Below the pieces are notes generated by a model. That model did not search any database, was not told where the DNA came from, and saw only the letters and a list, made by a program, of their open reading frames with translations. From assembly GCA_900659855.1 (NCBI GenBank), contig CAACVI010000012.1:382532-446531 (forward strand): a DNA stretch of 64,000 nt, written 5' to 3'. The position numbers and the translations under genes are program-made. The DNA is from Candidatus Desulfarcum epimagneticum. GTDB lineage: Bacteria; Desulfobacterota; Desulfobacteria; Desulfobacterales; CR-1. Numbering within the stretch: position 1 is the stretch's first letter; each line of letters opens with the position of its first letter. This document shows positions 1,735 through 13,413 of the stretch, piece by piece.

Positions 1735-3156
1735 ATGCTGAAAAAAAAATCCGGGGAAAAATCCAAACCGTTCAGACTGGTGAAGTATTTCACCTTGTTC
1801 AGCCTGGCCGGAATTTTCCTCGGGGCCTCCATTCTGGCGGTGCTCAATATCCACTGGGCCCGGAAAATGCAGCTGGAAAAAAGTGAGGATTACGCGCTTT
1901 TGCTGGTGGAAAACTTAAACCACCAGGTCTTTCAGCAGTTTGTGGTGCCGGTGCTCTTCAAATTCGGCGCCATCAAGCTCAGAAATCCCGATCAGTTCAC
2001 CCGGATGGACAATGTGGTGCGCAACACCCTGCACAGCTTCAATGTGGAGATGGTCAACATCTACAACATGAGCAGCTACATCTCCTACAGTTTTGACAAA
2101 AGCCGGGTGGGGGGAAAAAATGTGGAGGCCGCCGGCTACAAGAAGGCCCTGGGCGGCGTGGCCACCACCAAGCTCGTGCAGCGGGGCAACCTGTTTGAGA
2201 TCCTTTTGGGGATTCCCAAAGAAAGCAAAATGATCACCTTCGCCCCGCTCCAGGCCGAAAAGGCCCTGCGCCGGGTCTCGGGGGGCATCATGGGGGTGTT
2301 TGAGATCGTGCAGGATGTCTCCGGCGACTACCAGGCCATCGCCAAATTCCAGATACTGGTCATCATCACATCCGGCGTCGTCATGGGCCTGCTTTTTCTC
2401 ACCCTTCTGTACGTGGTGAAACGGGGGGAAAAAATCATCCAGATCCGGGCGGAAGAGCGGATGGCCCTCAAAGAGCGCCTGGCCCGGGCCGAGCATCTGT
2501 CTTACATCGGGGAAATGACCGCCGTGATCTCCCATGAAATCCGGAACCCTTTGGGGATCATCACCAGCTCGGCCGCGCTTTTGAAGAAAAAAATCGCCCA
2601 AACCGGCGTGTCGGACGTCCTGCCCAAAATTATTGTGGAGGAATCGGCCCGACTCAACCACATCATCACGGACTTCCTGGATTTTGCCAAGCCCAAAATT
2701 CCCCAGATGGCCCAGTGCCGGATCCAGGACATACTGGAAAAAAACATCGCCTTCCTTTCCCCCCAGCTCCGCGAGCAGGGACACCGCGTCTCCATGGAAA
2801 GCCAAACGGACGCGGGCGAGATCATGGCCGATTCGGCCATGCTTTACCAGGCGTTTCTCAATCTGTTCATCAACGCCATGCAGTCCATGCCCGGCGGCGG
2901 AGAGATCAGGGTTGAGCTGGAAAAAGGCCCGGATTTTGTCCGGGTGAAAATCACGGATTCCGGGCAGGCCCCCCCGGATGACCTCATGGAAAAAATCTGG
3001 TCCCCGTTTTTCACCACCAAGGAAAAGGGAACGGGCCTGGGGCTGGGAATCGTGAAAAATATCATCGAGGCCCACAACGGCAAGGCCTGGTTTCAAAAAA
3101 ATCCCGGGAAAAGCTCGACTGTGGCGGTTGAGCTTCCCATCCGACAGGACACATAA
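1735..3156 (+). CDS. Membrane-bound sensor histidine kinase (PilS/NtrB-like position)
   Basis: Sensor kinase of a two-component pair with the next gene. Two membrane segments (about residues 20-42 and 207-230) bracket an extracytoplasmic sensor region of about 160 residues. The cytoplasmic part has a HisKA domain with the phospho-acceptor His267 in VISHEIRNPLG, an N box with Asn380 (LFINAMQSMPGGGEI), and F/G boxes FFTTKEKGTGLGLGIV. There is no PAS domain between membrane and HisKA. The next gene, an NtrC-type regulator, starts two bases after the stop, and a pilin gene with a sigma-54 promoter follows, which suggests a PilS-like role. The ligand is unknown. AGGAGG right after mlaD is rather far from the ATG, so translation may be partly coupled. 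Confidence 0.88.
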   Translation: MLKKKSGEKSKPFRLVKYFTLFSLAGIFLGASILAVLNIHWARKMQLEKSEDYALLLVENLNHQVFQQFVVPVLFKFGAIKLRNPDQFTRMDNVVRNTLHSFNVEMVNIYNMSSYISYSFDKSRVGGKNVEAAGYKKALGGVATTKLVQRGNLFEILLGIPKESKMITFAPLQAEKALRRVSGGIMGVFEIVQDVSGDYQAIAKFQILVIITSGVVMGLLFLTLLYVVKRGEKIIQIRAEERMALKERLARAEHLSYIGEMTAVISHEIRNPLGIITSSAALLKKKIAQTGVSDVLPKIIVEESARLNHIITDFLDFAKPKIPQMAQCRIQDILEKNIAFLSPQLREQGHRVSMESQTDAGEIMADSAMLYQAFLNLFINAMQSMPGGGEIRVELEKGPDFVRVKITDSGQAPPDDLMEKIWSPFFTTKEKGTGLGLGIVKNIIEAHNGKAWFQKNPGKSSTVAVELPIRQDT

Positions 3157-3158
3157 AG

Positions 3159-4526
3159 ATGGAAACCATTCTCATTGTCGACGACGAAAAAAACTACACC
3201 CGGGTGTTGAGCGCGGTGCTGGAGGAAGAGGGTTTTGAGGCCCTTTCGGCCAACAGCGGCGCCGAGGCCCTGGACATCCTGCGCCACTCGGACGTGGATT
3301 TGATTTTAACGGATATGAAAATGTCCTCCATGGACGGCATCGCCCTCCTTGAAAAAATCAAAGAGACGGACCCCGATCTTCCGGTGGTCATGATGACGGC
3401 CCACGGCACAGTGGAAAAGGCGGTGGAGGCCATGCAGAAAGGGGCTTACAGCTTTCTCCAGAAGCCCTTTGACAACCAGCAGCTCCTGGTTTACATCCAC
3501 AAGGCCATCGCCATGTTCAGGGTGGTGAAGGAAAACCGCCGCCTGATCAGCGACGCCAGCTCCCGCTACGGCTTCGGCAGCATCATCGGCAAAAGCAAGG
3601 CCATGCGCGATATTTTTGAAACCATCCGCAAGGTGGCGCCCGCGCCGGCCACGGTTTTAATCGAAGGCGACAGCGGAACCGGAAAAGAGCTGGTGGCCCG
3701 CGCCATTCATCTCAACAGCCCCAGGCGCGACCGGCCCTTTATCGCGGTGAACTGCGGCGCCCTGGCCGAAAATCTTCTGGAAAGCGAGCTGTTCGGCCAT
3801 GAGCGGGGGGCCTTCACCGGCGCCTCGGCCATGAAAAAAGGCCGTTTTGAGATGGCGGACACCGGGACCCTGTTTCTGGACGAAATCGGCGAGCTGACCC
3901 CCTACCTCCAGGTCAAGCTGCTCCGCATTCTCCAGGAAAGGGTTTTTGAGCGGGTGGGCGGGGTGAAAACCATTTCCATCGACATCCGGCTCATCGCCGC
4001 CACCAACAAACGTCTCAAAGATGAAATGGAAGCCGGACGCTTCCGGGAGGATTTGTACTTCAGGCTCAACGTGGTGAGAATCGGGCTCCCCCCCTTAAGG
4101 GAGCGCAAAGAGGACATCCGGCTCCTCACGGATCATTTCATCAAAAAATACGCCGAGCACAGGCATTTAAACCGGCCCGTTCTCGGTGTGGATCCGGAAG
4201 TGGGGCGGCTTTTTGACCAGTGCCGGTGGCCGGGAAACATCCGGGAGCTGGAAAACGTGATCGAGCAGGCCATGATCCTTTGCCCCGGGGAAACCATCAC
4301 CGCGTCGGATCTGCCCAAGGATTTCATGGAAAACCTGGGCGAGACGCCCGGCGTGGAAGGCATACCCGAGGACGCCAAACTGGTTGAAACCCTTTCCGCC
4401 ATCGAGAAAAAAATGATCCAGCGGGCGCTGAGGCTCTCGGACAATGTGCAGTCCCAGGCGGCCGGGCTTTTGGGAATCGGCAAAAGCGGACTGAGCAAAA
4501 AAATGAAAAAATACGAGATCACGTAG
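3159..4526 (+). CDS. Sigma-54-dependent response regulator, NtrC family
   Basis: Cytoplasmic activator of sigma-54 RNA polymerase. The receiver domain covers residues about 1-120 with phospho-acceptor Asp52 (LILTDMKM) and the conserved Lys of QKPF near 102. The AAA+ domain covers about 140-375, with Walker A GDSGTGKE (170-177), the sigma-54 contact loop GAFTGA (217-222) and Walker B TLFLDE (237-242). A Fis-type helix-turn-helix lies at about 425-453 ([19 protein letters not shown]). Its gene is 2 bp after the kinase. Fifteen to sixty bases after its stop lie two palindromes in enhancer position for the pilin promoter, so the likely target is adjacent (inference). Confidence 0.93.
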
Positions 4527-4543: not shown

Positions 4544-4581
4544 GTTTCCAAACGGAAACACATCGGTTTCCATTTGGAAAC
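4544..4581. promoter_or_regulatory. Tandem palindromic enhancer sites for the NtrC-type regulator (predicted)
   Basis: Two 16-bp palindromes of identical arms, GTTTCC-N4-GGAAAC, lie at 4544-4559 and 4566-4581. Their centres are 22 bp apart, about two helical turns. The first extends to GTGTTTCC-N4-GGAAACAC. They end about 125 bp before the -24 element at 4707, which is normal spacing for enhancer binding by NtrC-type dimers. The arms are seen directly; assignment to the regulator encoded just upstream is inference. Confidence 0.7.
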
Positions 4582-4706
4582 ACATTTCGTGAAAAGCAGG
4601 CCCCCAGCCGCCGACGCTCTGGGGCGCCCCCAAAAGAGGCATGGGTATCTATTTGATTTTAAAAAAGATAAAAAAATATTTATTTTTTTCGTTATTTTTT
4701 TGATTG

Positions 4707-4722
4707 TGGCGCCGATTTTGCA
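4707..4722 (+). promoter_or_regulatory. Sigma-54 (-24/-12) promoter for the pilin
   Basis: TGGCGCC-GATT-TTGCA matches the sigma-54 consensus TGGCACG-N4-TTGCW, with the invariant GG (4708-4709) and GC (4720-4721) exactly ten bases apart. Predicted start of transcription is near 4733. The next gene downstream is the pilin at 4918, giving an untranslated leader of about 185 bases. Confidence 0.75.
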
Positions 4723-4768
4723 TCTATATAAATACAATCTGATAATTTTTTTTCTATTTTCCTCCTTA

Positions 4769-4805
4769 AGGGCCGACCGGATTTCATCCGGCCGGCCCTT
4801 TCCCT
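4769..4805 (+). terminator. Stem-loop with weak T-tract between sigma-54 promoter and pilin
   Basis: Thirteen-position stem with one mismatch (arms 4769-4781 and 4787-4799, loop TTTCA), followed by CTTTCCCTTTCC. It resembles a weak intrinsic terminator. It could end readthrough from the regulator operon. Because it sits about 36 bases after the predicted sigma-54 start, it could also act as an attenuator or as the 3' end of a short RNA. Confidence 0.5.
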
Positions 4806-4841
4806 TTCCGGAGTCTGCGGACAATATTCCCACAGTTTCCC

Positions 4842-4870: not shown

Positions 4871-4917
4871 CCGTTCCATCTGAACAACGGATTCAACGCT
4901 TCTTGGAGGAAATGAAC

Positions 4918-5298
4918 ATGACTCACCGGGAAAAAGGATTTACCCTGATTGAATTGATGATCGTGATCGCCATTATCGGCATTCTGGCGCTGATCGCCAT
5001 CCCGAATCTGATCGCCTCTCGAAACCGGGGCTTTTGCGCCCACGCGGAAACCGACGCCAAAAATGTGGCCACCGCCCTGGCGGAGCATTTTTCCGACCCG
5101 ACCCAGACCGCCCTGCCCGCGTGCGCCGATCTGGACGGTTTTGCCCCGGCCAACGGGTGCGCCAACGTCGCCATCACCGGCGACCCCGACAGCGCCGTCG
5201 TCATCACGGTGACGGACCAAAGCGGCCGATGCCCCAGGGGCGCGAGTTACCAGCTCACCATGCCCCAGGCGACGGGCGACGGATGGCAGACTCCATAG
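4918..5298 (+). CDS. Type IV pilin-like protein (PilA-type prepilin)
   Basis: A 126-residue prepilin. A short leader MTHREKG precedes the prepilin-peptidase site G|FTLIELMIV, with Glu5 of the mature protein present, followed by one hydrophobic N-terminal helix (about residues 8-30). The globular part is small and carries four cysteines (in GFCAH, LPACAD, NGCAN and GRCPRG), enough for two disulfides. The ATG at 4918 is chosen because GGAGGA lies seven bases before it; the in-frame ATG at 4912 is too close to that site. The product should be processed by PilD and assembled into a type IV pilus or a pseudopilus. The length fits short deltaproteobacterial pilins. Expression is predicted to depend on sigma-54 and the upstream two-component pair. 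Confidence 0.88.
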   Translation: MTHREKGFTLIELMIVIAIIGILALIAIPNLIASRNRGFCAHAETDAKNVATALAEHFSDPTQTALPACADLDGFAPANGCANVAITGDPDSAVVITVTDQSGRCPRGASYQLTMPQATGDGWQTP

Positions 5299-5371: not shown

Positions 5372-5926
5372 TTAAAGCCGGCAGATACTGTCGTCGCACG
5401 GACACGCCCCGTCCACCTCATAGGCGTAGGCGATTCTCCCCTCCAAATCCAGGCGTGTTTCATCCAAAGACGCCAGGGGCCGGTCTTCCCATTTTTCGAA
5501 AAGCGCCCGCCGGGAGGGAATGGCCCCCGGCCCCCGGGCCGACGCCTCGCCGGTTTGTCCGTCGAGTATCTCGGCGTCTTCCCCGTTTGTGACCACCACC
5601 ACCGGGACCTCCCCCCGGGCCGCCAGACGCGCCAGGGCCAGCGCCGGACGGCGTCGGGTCAGAAGCGAGCCGGGGCCGTACTGGATGACCATGAGGGTTT
5701 TTTCCCCGGAAAAAATCTCAAAATCCACCTTTAAAATCGCCCTCTTCTCCCCGGCGGCCACCATGATTTCACGCCTGGAGCGGATGTCATCCTTTGAATA
5801 TCCCTTTTGCCGCAAAAGGATGGAGGCGATCTTTTGCCGGTATCTTTCGTCGTGGGTGTCGGGAATGGTTTCCCCGGTCAAAATGTCGGTCAACTCCCCC
5901 AGTATGAGATGGTGCCCGCCTTCCAT
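5372..5926 (-). CDS. Orphan HsdR-N-like (type I restriction N-terminal) nuclease-fold protein
   Basis: A 184-residue protein resembling stand-alone type I restriction enzyme R-subunit N-terminal domain proteins. Recognisable are the segment KVDFEIFSGEKTLMVIQYG and GPGSLLTRRRPALALARL, then VVVVTNGEDAEIL. In relatives as I remember them, the strand before GPGSL carries a lysine (K-CGPGS). Here the residue is Gln (VIQYGPGS), so the PD-(D/E)XK site may be inactive; this needs an alignment. There is no motor or specificity subunit nearby. It starts 18 bases after the sugar aminotransferase stop on the same strand, so it is probably in that operon. It converges with the pilin gene. Confidence 0.6.
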   Translation of the reverse strand: MEGGHHLILGELTDILTGETIPDTHDERYRQKIASILLRQKGYSKDDIRSRREIMVAAGEKRAILKVDFEIFSGEKTLMVIQYGPGSLLTRRRPALALARLAARGEVPVVVVTNGEDAEILDGQTGEASARGPGAIPSRRALFEKWEDRPLASLDETRLDLEGRIAYAYEVDGACPCDDSICRL

Positions 5927-9880: not shown

Positions 9881-11533
9881 AGGGTTTCCTGAACAAGTTA
9901 AAAATCAGAGAATAAGAGCTTTCCAAAGGGCTCAGATTGTCACATATAGCGTCGCCATCCTTTTACTTCCTGAATTTGGGATACTGAGCGCGTATTCAAG
10001 CCCATTTTTGCAGTGAAAAAAGAGACAAAAAAGAGCGGTTTTGAGCCACTTCGCAATGTTCATGACCAGAAACGACATGGAGATGGCGGTCTCCGAGGTT
10101 CCCGGCAGCTTGCTCATAATCTTTGACAAACTGAAACGGCGTTTTCCCTGGCCAAATTTGCCCTCAATCGGAATTCGATCCAGCTCATCCTGGCGGGCCT
10201 GTCTCTTCATCTTCGGGTCAATGTTCTTCGGAGGCCTGCCCAATCTGGGGCCTGAAAGCCGAATCCTGTGTTTCTTGCAGAACCTGAGATTCTTCCGGGT
10301 TCGGTATATCCTGTCCGAATGAACGGACTCGGGATAAAATCCGAAACGGGAACGATACGCCTTGATCTGGTCCTTCAGGTCCCCTGACTCGTTGAAGTTG
10401 TCCCAGCCGATCCGATCCAAAAAAACAAAGCCTTCCACAAGGGCGGCCGACAGTTTCGCGCCAAACTCCGTTGACACGACCGCTTTGCCCCGCTTAATGG
10501 GACGGACATGGAGCTGGGATATACTCACGATCCGGTCGTCTATTCTTTTTGCCCTGTGGTCAAACATCCATTGCTGCTGACGAAACAGCTCGTGGATCAC
10601 AAGAAGGTCTTTGTATTGCCTGCGGCTCAACGCCGTCAGAGATGTTTTTCGGGACAGTTTCCCGATTGTGTTCAGGTTGCGCCTCAGATAACCCAGCTGC
10701 TTTCGGATGGCCTTTCGGCGTTTGTTTGCAGACAGCCTTTTACTTTTGGCCGCTGAGAGAAATTCCTTGCGAGCTCTTTTCCGGTATGTCCGTGGCTTTT
10801 TTTGTTTTCCTTTGAGCGGCTCATGCAATACATCAATGATCTCTTCACGCTTTTCTCTTGCATGGTTGAGTAATTTGAGGTCTGTGGGATATGTGATGTC
10901 CGAAGGCGCGCAGGTGGCGTCCACCAGAAGCTTGCCTTTGTTTTTCGAACCGGGCGGGTCCAGGTCATCATCTTTTTTGCCCGATCGCTTTTTTTTCGCA
11001 GGTTTTCGGGATTCGGACATCGCCTTTTTCACCACAGCTTCATTGATCATGGCCATTTTGTCTTTCCCGATTCTTTTCCGGAAGTGAACAAACATGCTCG
11101 GATCAAAAGGGGGCTCGTCTTTGTATTTCTTAAACCCAAGAAAATACTGAAGATAAGGGTTCTCACGAATCTGTTCCACAGTCTCTTCGTCGCTGGCTCC
11201 AAGACGCTCTTTGATGATCAGCGCCCCGATGGCCACTCTGGCCGGCAAAGCGGGTTGACCCATGTGAGAGCCGGAAAGAGATTCGCAGTAGACGGATTCA
11301 AATTCTTCCCATGGAATGAATTTGGCCATTTTAACCCATCGGTTGTCGCTTCTGAGTTTTCCTGAAAACGGCAGAACAAAATTTTCAAATTCCATCTGCC
11401 CGGATGTGTGTCTATACATGGCGTAAGATGCAAAGGTTTTTGGGGTTATGGGGGGTTTTTCTTGCGCTTTTTGCCTTTTTTTAGCATCTTTTTCTATTTT
11501 TATCAAGGGTTTATTTGTTTTTCAGGAAGCCCC
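9881..11533 (-). mobile_element. Insertion sequence, IS5/IS1182-like group, complete
   Basis: The ends are imperfect inverted repeats: AGGGTTTCCTGAA at 9881-9893 and TTCAGGAAGCCCC at 11521-11533 (11 of 13 positions complementary). AATT flanks both sides (9877-9880 and 11534-11537), fitting a 4-bp target duplication, though AATT is self-complementary and could be part of the repeat. One transposase gene fills the 1653-bp element. It lies in the - strand orientation of the glycan operon, upstream of wecE. Confidence 0.8.
9932..11506 (-). CDS. DDE transposase with DUF772-type N-terminus
   Basis: A 524-residue transposase. The N-terminal part (FVLPFSGKLRSDNRWVKMA, IPWEEFE, ALIIKERLGASDEETVEQI, NPYLQYFLGF) is the DUF772-type DNA-binding region of IS5/IS1182-like elements. 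The catalytic DDE core includes LLVDATCAPSDI (first Asp) and a later ... IDRIPIEGKFGQGKRRFSL-like segment with the acidic residue in IEGKFG. A basic insertion lies between about residues 170 and 310. The track start is a TTG at 11506 without a ribosome site; an ATG at 11419 is an alternative. The gene appears intact. Confidence 0.88.
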   Translation of the reverse strand: MIKIEKDAKKRQKAQEKPPITPKTFASYAMYRHTSGQMEFENFVLPFSGKLRSDNRWVKMAKFIPWEEFESVYCESLSGSHMGQPALPARVAIGALIIKERLGASDEETVEQIRENPYLQYFLGFKKYKDEPPFDPSMFVHFRKRIGKDKMAMINEAVVKKAMSESRKPAKKKRSGKKDDDLDPPGSKNKGKLLVDATCAPSDITYPTDLKLLNHAREKREEIIDVLHEPLKGKQKKPRTYRKRARKEFLSAAKSKRLSANKRRKAIRKQLGYLRRNLNTIGKLSRKTSLTALSRRQYKDLLVIHELFRQQQWMFDHRAKRIDDRIVSISQLHVRPIKRGKAVVSTEFGAKLSAALVEGFVFLDRIGWDNFNESGDLKDQIKAYRSRFGFYPESVHSDRIYRTRKNLRFCKKHRIRLSGPRLGRPPKNIDPKMKRQARQDELDRIPIEGKFGQGKRRFSLSKIMSKLPGTSETAISMSFLVMNIAKWLKTALFCLFFHCKNGLEYALSIPNSGSKRMATLYVTI

Positions 11534-11940: not shown

Positions 11941-13413
11941 CAATGTCATTAACTTAAGCAATGGGTTTGTAGTTTTGGTAAAAGGCCCTGGGCCTGATTT
12001 TATGTTTTCGCGGAAAACTTCTTCCGGGGCGAATGGGTTCGATTGTCTCAACGAAAATATGGTGAATGCCGGATATTAGTTTTTCGACCGCCTTGGCCGG
12101 CTGATTGAACAATAAAACCATGGCGATTTTCATCTTGGAAAGGGCTTGGGTAAAGTTGATCTGATAAGGATGTTTTCGGCCCCTGGTTTTATTCCTGATC
12201 TGTTTTTTGACCGGATGCGCCGTCATAGCAGTGAGATTTTTGGATAAAACCTTTGAATGGAAGTCCTGATAAACAGACAAAACGGACTTTCCGGAGAAAT
12301 TTTGAACCTCGATCCGGCATTTTAAAGCTTTGTAATCTTCTTCGACGGGCCATCGCAAATGGTACAGATCTTTGAATATATGAACGGGAAAGGCTTGACC
12401 GTCGGTTAAGGATGTGATCAGAATTTCCGTTTCGCCGTTTTTCAGTTCCACCCGGATCAACCTTAATTTCAAAGGCTTGATGTCCAGGCCCATCTCTTTG
12501 CACTGGGAGATTGAGGAGGACGGGGCCTTTAAGCGGATAATCTTTTCCTTTTTGCCGGATTTGGAGAACTTTTGGATTATTTTCCATTTTTTTGATATTC
12601 GGGCGCAGAAATTGGCGTTGAGCGATAATATCAAATTGAAAAGCCAGTAGGCTGGATAGCCGCGATCCAGAAGAATCAGGTCCTGGGGCAGGAGATTCAG
12701 AAAATGATCCGCCGCCAGCTCCCTTTCACCGTTCTCAAGCGGGCTGATAGCGGCGTGGATTGTGGTTTTATTGATGACATCGAACATCTGGGAAATTCTG
12801 GCCATGGGGCGGGGTTTGCCTTTTGTGGGTTTCAGGACCCCGAAATGATCGGTGATCTCTTTTTCATGGGGAAGGGCCAAGGTAGAGCCGTCAATGGCCA
12901 GCAGGTTAAATCCGCGCCATGTTTCAGGCGACATGTTTTCATAAAAGAAGCGGTTGGAGAGCCGATTGAGTTCTATAAAAGCCTCGTGTTTAAGTTTTTT
13001 TCGGGCCTTGCACAATGCGGCTTTTGAGACCATGCGTTCAAAACCGTCCAGATGAAGCATGGTTTTATAAAAACGATCCAGTTCATCCTGATAGGATCCT
13101 TTGGGCAGGCTTAAGAAATAATGGATCAGTGTGGGGAATGTGAGAAGTCTGTTTCTCTGGAAATCTTTTTCAGAAAATCTGTGTTTTTGAAGAAAATCAT
13201 GAGAATGAATGATTTTATTGAGATTTTTGAAAAGGTTGGCACAGATTTTGCAAAGCAATATCCGTGCCGTGGCGACGTGACTTTTCAACTTTTCTTGACA
13301 TTTTTTTCTCCTTTTAGCAAAAGAATGGTTTGAAAACTTTAAAACAAAAATATCATAACTGCCTGAAAAATCAATAAAAATATTCATTTTAATCGCTTAA
13401 GTTAATGACATTG
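11941..13413 (-). mobile_element. IS4-family insertion sequence, complete
   Basis: Perfect 19-bp terminal inverted repeats CAATGTCATTAACTTAAGC at 11941-11959 and its complement at 13395-13413 enclose one transposase gene. The 10-bp direct repeat GGTTGTAAGG (11931-11940 and 13414-13423) is the target duplication, a length normal for IS4-type elements. Exact ends and duplication suggest a recent insertion. The stop codon of the transposase lies inside the left repeat. Confidence 0.95.
11954..13387 (-). CDS. IS4-family transposase
   Basis: A 477-residue DDE transposase. The first Asp is in LLAIDGSTLALP and the second in LILLDRGYPAYW. The IS4 signature Y-x2-R-x3-E-x6-K is seen as YHLRWPVEEDYKALK, carrying the catalytic Glu. 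The N-terminal third is basic and probably binds the ends. The reading frame is intact and fills the element, so it may be active. The ATG at 13387 lies just inside the right inverted repeat. Confidence 0.95.
   Translation of the reverse strand: MNIFIDFSGSYDIFVLKFSNHSFAKRRKKCQEKLKSHVATARILLCKICANLFKNLNKIIHSHDFLQKHRFSEKDFQRNRLLTFPTLIHYFLSLPKGSYQDELDRFYKTMLHLDGFERMVSKAALCKARKKLKHEAFIELNRLSNRFFYENMSPETWRGFNLLAIDGSTLALPHEKEITDHFGVLKPTKGKPRPMARISQMFDVINKTTIHAAISPLENGERELAADHFLNLLPQDLILLDRGYPAYWLFNLILSLNANFCARISKKWKIIQKFSKSGKKEKIIRLKAPSSSISQCKEMGLDIKPLKLRLIRVELKNGETEILITSLTDGQAFPVHIFKDLYHLRWPVEEDYKALKCRIEVQNFSGKSVLSVYQDFHSKVLSKNLTAMTAHPVKKQIRNKTRGRKHPYQINFTQALSKMKIAMVLLFNQPAKAVEKLISGIHHIFVETIEPIRPGRSFPRKHKIRPRAFYQNYKPIA

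What the first reader, a model, noticed from the sequence alone, without database searches (positions are those of the whole stretch)
4544..4722. Complete sigma-54 switch for a pilin: NtrC-type regulator, tandem enhancer, -24/-12 promoter
Two palindromes GTTTCC-N4-GGAAAC lie 22 bp apart right after an NtrC-family gene with an intact GAFTGA loop. About 125 bp further is TGGCGCC-N4-TTGCA with the exact GG-N10-GC spacing, then a type IV pilin. Sensor, activator, binding sites and target are all in 3.5 kb, and the operator sequence itself may be undescribed for this regulator group.
Basis: partly seen in the sequence, partly recalled or inferred. Interest (0 to 1): 0.6.

Follow-up and report, generated by a model that had tools for sequence, protein, structure and literature searches.

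The report
Sigma-54-driven small RNA, likely porin repressor

Summary
The DNA features are exactly as described: two GTTTCC-N4-GGAAAC palindromes 22 bp apart behind an NtrC-type gene, then a -24/-12 promoter. The pilin interpretation does not hold. A strong hairpin (4768-4800) lies between promoter and pilin, and comparison with relatives shows the promoter makes a conserved ~70-nt RNA (4735-4806). A covariance model finds this RNA in 46/58 genomes of the order and 140/291 of the class. Of 13 hairpin pairs, 12 show compensatory changes; no Rfam family matches. Nearly every copy checked carries the -24/-12 element, and most carry upstream palindromes (GTTTCC or GTTCAA type), including copies far from the regulator gene. 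Palindrome type matches one recognition-helix residue of the regulator in 38/38 cases. The pilin is beside the RNA in no other genome examined. The RNA's unpaired part is the reverse complement of a Shine-Dalgarno + ATG start. In the own genome its best partner among 347 gene starts is an outer-membrane porin start (-25 kcal/mol); porin starts in five relatives also rank first or second. Best reading: a periplasm-sensing two-component system, via sigma-54, makes an RNA that represses porins without Hfq (not found in 40 genomes). The RNA and its control are well supported; porin repression is inferred.

The parts
1735..3156 (+). Sensor histidine kinase: two transmembrane segments around a periplasmic PAS/CACHE-like domain, HisKA + HATPase_c core
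   Evidence: Pfam; hydropathy; sensor-domain model pLDDT 87.6 closest to the WalK extracellular domain, Z 15.5, rmsd 3.3, 138 aligned; kept next to the regulator in 58 loci
3159..4526 (+). NtrC-type response regulator (receiver, sigma-54 AAA+ with GAFTGA, Fis-type HTH); recognition helix [11 protein letters not shown] with K at the residue that follows the operator type
   Evidence: Pfam; orthologues at 55-73% identity across the order; helix/operator match
4544..4559 (.). Upstream activator site 1, GTTTCC-N4-GGAAAC
   Evidence: equivalents at matching positions upstream of the RNA in relatives
4566..4581 (.). Upstream activator site 2, 22 bp from site 1
4707..4722 (+). -24/-12 promoter TGGCGCCGATTTTGCA; predicted transcript start near 4733
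   Evidence: same element at TGG -24 to -35 from the RNA start in 29 of 30 loci; conservation profile
4735..4806 (+). Conserved small RNA (covariance model R1 match, E = 4.2e-11)
4738..4767 (+). Single-stranded pairing region UCUGAUAAUUUUUUUUCUAUUUUCCUCCUU with anti-Shine-Dalgarno core CCUCC (4761-4765); pairs with a porin start elsewhere in the genome (G000:C1:459455-459485)
   Evidence: RNAduplex -25.0 kcal/mol, rank 1 of 347 gene starts, 0 of 500 shuffled RNAs as good
4768..4800 (+). Terminator hairpin of the small RNA; 12 of 13 consensus pairs have compensatory changes among relatives; weak U-tract in this genome
4842..4870 (+). Sigma-70-like sequence TTGACA-N17-TATGAA downstream of the hairpin, candidate own promoter of the pilin
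   Evidence: read from the sequence; not listed by the promoter scan
4918..5298 (+). Type IV pilin-like gene, neighbour in this genome only
   Evidence: N_methyl; no homologue beside the RNA in other loci

Best explanation
The locus is a dedicated signalling module with a small RNA as output. A two-transmembrane histidine kinase with a periplasmic PAS/CACHE-like sensor phosphorylates the NtrC-type regulator. The regulator binds two or more 16-bp palindromes about 150-330 bp upstream of the RNA start and activates sigma-54 polymerase at the -24/-12 promoter. Transcription starts near 4733 and ends at the hairpin 4768-4800, giving a ~70-nt RNA. Its unpaired 5' half is complementary to the ribosome-binding site, start codon and first codons of outer-membrane porin mRNAs; pairing would block translation and lower porin levels. 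Hfq is apparently absent, so the long (~25 bp) pairing would have to work without it. Supported by sequence evidence: the RNA, its promoter and its regulator. Inferred: binding, transcription, porin repression and the signal. I put the RNA and its sigma-54/regulator control at about 0.93, and porins as the main target at about 0.7.
For: RNA: alignment of 22 loci, 12/13 pairs with compensatory changes, 0/500 shuffles reach the covariation score; covariance model hits in 46/58 genomes of the order and 140/291 of the class; conservation rises at the predicted start. Control: -24/-12 in 29/30 loci, palindromes upstream of both linked and unlinked copies; 17 of 19 exact GTTCAA-N4-TTGAAC sites in 12 whole genomes sit at the RNA; palindrome type agrees with the recognition-helix residue (K for GTTTCC; Q, W or Y for GTTCAA) in 38/38, with 5 changes on the tree (at least 3 on well-supported branches), and a forecast for G051 held; RpoN present. 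Target: the unpaired part reads as the complement of AAGGAGGAAAACAGATGAAGAAA; the own porin start ranks 1/347; porin homologues in five RNA-bearing relatives (G023, G025, G043, G008, G040, plus two in G014) rank 1-2 with their own RNA; genome-wide near-perfect complement sites outside RNA genes are mostly exported beta-barrel proteins (10/13 signal-peptide-like against 28% of ATGAA-starting genes, p = 0.0004).
Against: No transcript or binding data. The own RNA has lost the complement of the AUG, and its pairing (-25) is weaker than that of the consensus RNA (-35). A sample of 18% of genome G010 showed no target standing clear of shuffled controls. The porin homologue in G016 ranks only 35. 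G005 has a well-matched porin start but no RNA was detected. Complementarity to a ribosome-binding site favours any strong SD gene. The kinase signal is unknown.
Confidence: 0.75

Rival explanations
1. Pilin switch: the sigma-54 promoter drives the pilin, and the hairpin is a leader or attenuator that is read through.
For: The pilin is co-directional and about 185 bp downstream of the predicted start; Geobacter PilR drives a downstream pilA from an RpoN promoter (PMC2725144); the U-tract is weak in this genome.
Against: The pilin is absent beside the RNA in all other loci; the next gene is convergent in 32/47 loci; the unit moves without the regulator gene or any pilin; the pilin has its own promoter-like sequence; the kinase has 2 TM segments, not the 6 of PilS (own knowledge).
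Confidence: 0.07
2. The small RNA is real and sigma-54-controlled, but porins are not its main targets: it may have many SD-type targets, other mRNAs, or titrate a protein.
For: CCUCC is a general anti-SD core; the G010 sample gave no outlying target; near-perfect sites are missing in many RNA-bearing genomes; the linked pilin start also pairs (-23.2).
Against: Conserved pairing runs past the SD through the start codon and the MKK codons, and the best partners are porins in several genomes.
Confidence: 0.2
3. The palindromes are RNA hairpins or terminator elements of the regulator gene rather than protein-binding sites.
For: Each can form a 6-7 bp stem just after the stop codon; on the minus strand one is called terminator-like.
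Against: They occur at set distances upstream of unlinked RNA copies too and change sequence in step with the regulator's recognition helix.
Confidence: 0.02

Closest known systems
Pxr small RNA with PxrR/PxrK, Myxococcus (PMC5684412, PMC5568312)
   Same: NtrC-like regulator and histidine kinase directly upstream, predicted enhancer region and sigma-54 promoter, small RNA gene downstream, paralogous copies in some genomes
   Different: Pxr has three stem-loops, a different sequence (~108 nt), is described only from myxobacteria and blocks development; its targets were still unknown in the abstract of PMC11928866
MicA/RybB and other sigma-E porin-repressing RNAs of enterobacteria (PMC1804206)
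   Same: Small RNAs that down-regulate outer-membrane protein mRNAs
   Different: Controlled by sigma-E and Hfq-dependent (own knowledge); here a sigma-54 two-component system, no Hfq found, unrelated sequence
FoxI/FoxJ of Fusobacterium nucleatum (PMC11005410)
   Same: C-rich seed, represses the major porin FomA, organism lacks Hfq and ProQ
   Different: Sigma-E controlled, no NtrC-type regulator, different sequence
GlmY (GlrR), Qrr (LuxO), CrcZ (CbrB)
   Same: Small RNAs switched on by NtrC-type activators and sigma-54 (own knowledge; GlmY context in PMC7073468)
   Different: Different RNAs, targets and lineages; Rfam search finds no match
PilS-PilR-pilA of Geobacter and Pseudomonas (PMC2725144)
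   Same: Kinase, NtrC-type regulator, RpoN promoter, pilin next in line
   Different: Here a conserved terminator-ended RNA intervenes, the pilin is not conserved and the kinase has 2 TM segments

Membership tests
Sigma-54/NtrC-activated small RNA | -24/-12 promoter with conserved GG and GC | tested here: met
   29/30 loci
Sigma-54/NtrC-activated small RNA | Upstream activator sites matched to an NtrC-type regulator | tested here: met
   Palindrome type against recognition helix 38/38; sites upstream of unlinked copies. Binding itself not testable here
Sigma-54/NtrC-activated small RNA | Conserved non-coding transcript ending in an intrinsic terminator | tested here: met
   transcript itself not observed
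Porin-repressing antisense-type small RNA | Complementarity to porin translation-initiation regions beyond chance | tested here: met
   exceptions G016 and the G010 sample
Porin-repressing antisense-type small RNA | Repression of porin synthesis in cells | not testable with these tools
   needs experiment
Hfq-dependent small RNA | Hfq in the genome | tested here: not met
   0/40 genomes, control genomes positive
Pxr | NtrC-like regulator, kinase and sigma-54 promoter next to the RNA gene | tested here: met
   window layout
Pxr | Three stem-loops with conserved SL1/SL2 | tested here: not met
   single hairpin, unstructured 5' half
PilSR-pilA switch | Pilin conserved downstream of the sigma-54 promoter | tested here: not met
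PilSR-pilA switch | PilS-type kinase with six transmembrane helices | tested here: not met
   two hydrophobic segments, 15-42 and 201-229; the six-helix criterion is from own knowledge
Any Rfam RNA family | Score above the gathering threshold | tested here: not met

The most novel reading that the evidence does not exclude
An order-wide envelope-control circuit in sulfate reducers in which a periplasm-sensing two-component system has essentially one output, a sigma-54 small RNA that shuts off porins by ~25-bp pairing without Hfq, and whose operator and regulator helix have switched together several times.
Probability: 0.5. Interest if true: 0.72.

Novelty: new variant of a known kind. Interest (0 to 1): 0.6.

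Why it matters
It would be a non-coding arm of envelope control in a large, ecologically important group of sulfate reducers in which I found no small RNA family in Rfam and no Hfq. It would show that porin control by small RNA, usually tied to sigma-E, has also been built on a sigma-54 two-component system. The paired changes in operator and recognition helix, some between close relatives, offer a ready test of how such regulators read DNA. It also warns that a regulator-promoter-pilin layout can mislead when a short RNA gene sits between.

Tried and rejected
Pilin as conserved target: rejected. RNA as a leader of the next gene: rejected, 32 of 47 neighbours convergent. Mla (outer-membrane lipid) operon as a conserved partner: MlaD precedes the kinase here and in L038 but in no other locus examined, so not used as evidence. 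Other GTTTCC sites of the genome as further targets: single sites inside ORFs, no -24/-12. Random target screen of 40 x 20 kb of G010: no gene start stands clear of shuffled-RNA controls (best -29.7 against -22.6 to -27.7). Known RNA family: weak Rfam matches only, far below cut-offs. Full-length kinase fold search returned only kinase cores, so the sensor domain was modelled alone. Phylum search: 9/297 hits, all of the order except two weak ones of one other family.

Full report
Observation. Two exact GTTTCC-N4-GGAAAC palindromes (4544-4559, 4566-4581) lie 22 bp apart just after an NtrC-type gene, followed by TGGCGCCGATTTTGCA at 4707-4722. The genome has three further exact single sites, all inside ORFs of one repeated family and without a -24/-12-like element nearby. 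The pair is therefore unique in the genome. It missed a strong hairpin at 4768-4800 that stands between this promoter and the pilin start at 4918.

What lies downstream of the promoter. Orthologues of the regulator (55-73% identity) occur across the order, which named records identify as Desulfobacterales. Downstream of many of them sits the same block: palindromes, a -24/-12 element, then a conserved stretch (consensus CAACCTAATAATTTCTTCATCTGTTTTCCTCCTTAATGGCC, then a hairpin and usually a T-run). Conservation is high in the -24 and -12 boxes, low between -12 and the predicted start, and rises again at the start. The hairpin is present in all, and 12 of its 13 pairs show compensatory changes; no shuffle reaches the covariation score, and slid versions collapse. 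These are the marks of a small RNA with its own terminator. Rfam has no match above threshold for the window or for five of the best relatives.

Spread. A covariance model (R1) finds the RNA in 46 of 58 genomes of the order, one per family, in 140 of 291 genomes of the class, and in 9 of 297 across the phylum, where only two weak hits lie outside the order. Some genomes carry two to four copies. Neighbouring genes vary: of 47 RNA loci, the next gene is convergent in 32 and co-directional in 14. No pilin homologue was found beside any other copy.

Control. Of 30 RNA loci, 29 have the -24/-12 element at the right distance, and most have palindromes upstream. This includes genomes where the RNA is on another contig or far from the regulator gene, such as G028, G054, G010, G018, G014, G002, G029 and G022. 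Two palindrome types exist: GTTTCC-N4-GGAAAC, typically two copies 22 bp apart, and GTTCAA-N4-TTGAAC, one to three copies about 75-79 bp apart. In 12 whole genomes with the second type, 17 of 19 exact sites lie at the RNA (one search read), so the regulator appears almost dedicated to it. The type follows one residue of the regulator's recognition helix: K with GTTTCC, and Q, W or Y with GTTCAA. G051 was a forecast and held. Over 38 regulators with a linked site the match is 38/38. A tree built without the helix needs 5 changes, at least 3 on well-supported branches, and each independent pair agrees. With so few independent pairs a sign test cannot reach significance (p = 0.25), so the strength lies in the absence of any exception. 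RpoN is present in the genome.

Target. The unpaired half of the consensus RNA is the reverse complement of TTAAGGAGGAAAACAGATGAAGAAATTATTAGG: a Shine-Dalgarno, spacer, start codon and M-K-K codons. Searching 56 genomes for AAGGAGGAAAACAGATGAA with one mismatch returned, besides RNA genes, gene starts of mostly exported or beta-barrel proteins: the own porin at C1:459469, porins in G021 (two), G023 and G025, Phenol_MetA_deg-type channels in G011 and G035, and a lipoprotein-like protein in G015. Ten of 13 look signal-peptide-bearing, against 17 of 60 ATGAA-starting genes of the own genome (p = 0.0004); G008 is counted although its codon at that place reads AGG. Independently, RNAduplex of the own RNA ranks the own porin start first of 347 gene starts (-25.0 kcal/mol; 0 of 500 shuffled RNAs as good). 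Porin homologues in G023, G043, G008 and G040 rank first, G025 second, and the two in G014 first and second, each with the RNA of its own genome (the background gene starts are those of the own genome). Exceptions: G016 ranks 35; G005 has a matching porin start but no detected RNA; and a sample of 18% of G010 gave no clear target. The own RNA has lost the AUG complement and pairs less well than the consensus, so the case is stronger for the family than for this copy.

Mechanism. Shown by sequence: kinase with two transmembrane segments and a sensor domain modelled as a PAS/CACHE-like fold closest to WalK's extracellular domain (pLDDT 87.6; Z 15.5, rmsd 3.3, 138 aligned); regulator; sites; promoter; RNA. 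Inferred: phosphorylation, DNA binding, transcription, and block of porin translation. Hfq was not found in 40 genomes of the order, although the same search rings in control genomes, so pairing would be Hfq-free, as in Fusobacterium, whose FoxI/FoxJ RNAs repress a porin in an organism without Hfq or ProQ (PMC11005410). The signal is unknown. An envelope signal is plausible from the periplasmic sensor and the porin target; the MlaD gene upstream of the kinase is not a conserved neighbour.

Comparison with what is known. The layout resembles Pxr of myxobacteria (NtrC-like regulator and kinase directly upstream of a sigma-54-driven small RNA; PMC5684412, PMC5568312), but Pxr has three stem-loops and a different sequence. 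It works like the porin-repressing RNAs of the sigma-E response (PMC1804206), but under a different sigma factor. The pilin reading resembles Geobacter PilR-pilA (PMC2725144) but fails on conservation. Verdict: a new RNA family and a new variant of a known kind. Ten searches of the open literature found no description of it, though subscription papers were not searchable.

Noticed in passing
Order-wide; own genome G000: No Hfq (PF17209) in any of 40 genomes of the order, while the same search finds it in control genomes.
   Followed up: partly
G010, G223, G276, G188, G250, G176: Several genomes carry two to four copies of the RNA, some in tandem within about 300-600 bp, reminiscent of the Qrr and Pxr paralogues.
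   Followed up: no
L178 (G147) against L174, L175, L177 (same genus); L185, L187 against L184 (same genus): Within single genera both the regulator helix and the palindrome type differ together, GTTTCC/K against GTTCAA/W or Q.
   Followed up: yes
L060-L089 downstream flanks: In most relatives with regulator and RNA linked, a convergent gene starting MAKK(R/K)..RKQLLKEPDEFI follows the RNA; it is not in that place in the window's genome.
   Followed up: no
4888-4925: The start region of the linked pilin also pairs with the RNA (RNAduplex -23.2 kcal/mol), largely through GGAGGAAA; it could be a cis-linked extra target.
   Followed up: no
184-1710: MlaD/MCE-family gene ends 24 bp before the kinase start, with an ATPase-like end before it at 1-183; the linkage is seen in only one other locus (L038).
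   Followed up: partly
5372-5926 (-): Small ORF with a type I restriction HSDR_N_2 domain, downstream of the pilin.
   Followed up: no
9932-11506 (-), 11954-13387 (-): Two long ORFs that look like insertion-sequence transposases by eye; no family search run.
   Followed up: no
G000:C5:65747, C12:111637, C15:11080 (L005-L007): The three other exact GTTTCC-N4-GGAAAC matches lie at the same place inside ORFs of one repeated family that resembles PD-(D/E)XK nucleases by eye.
   Followed up: partly
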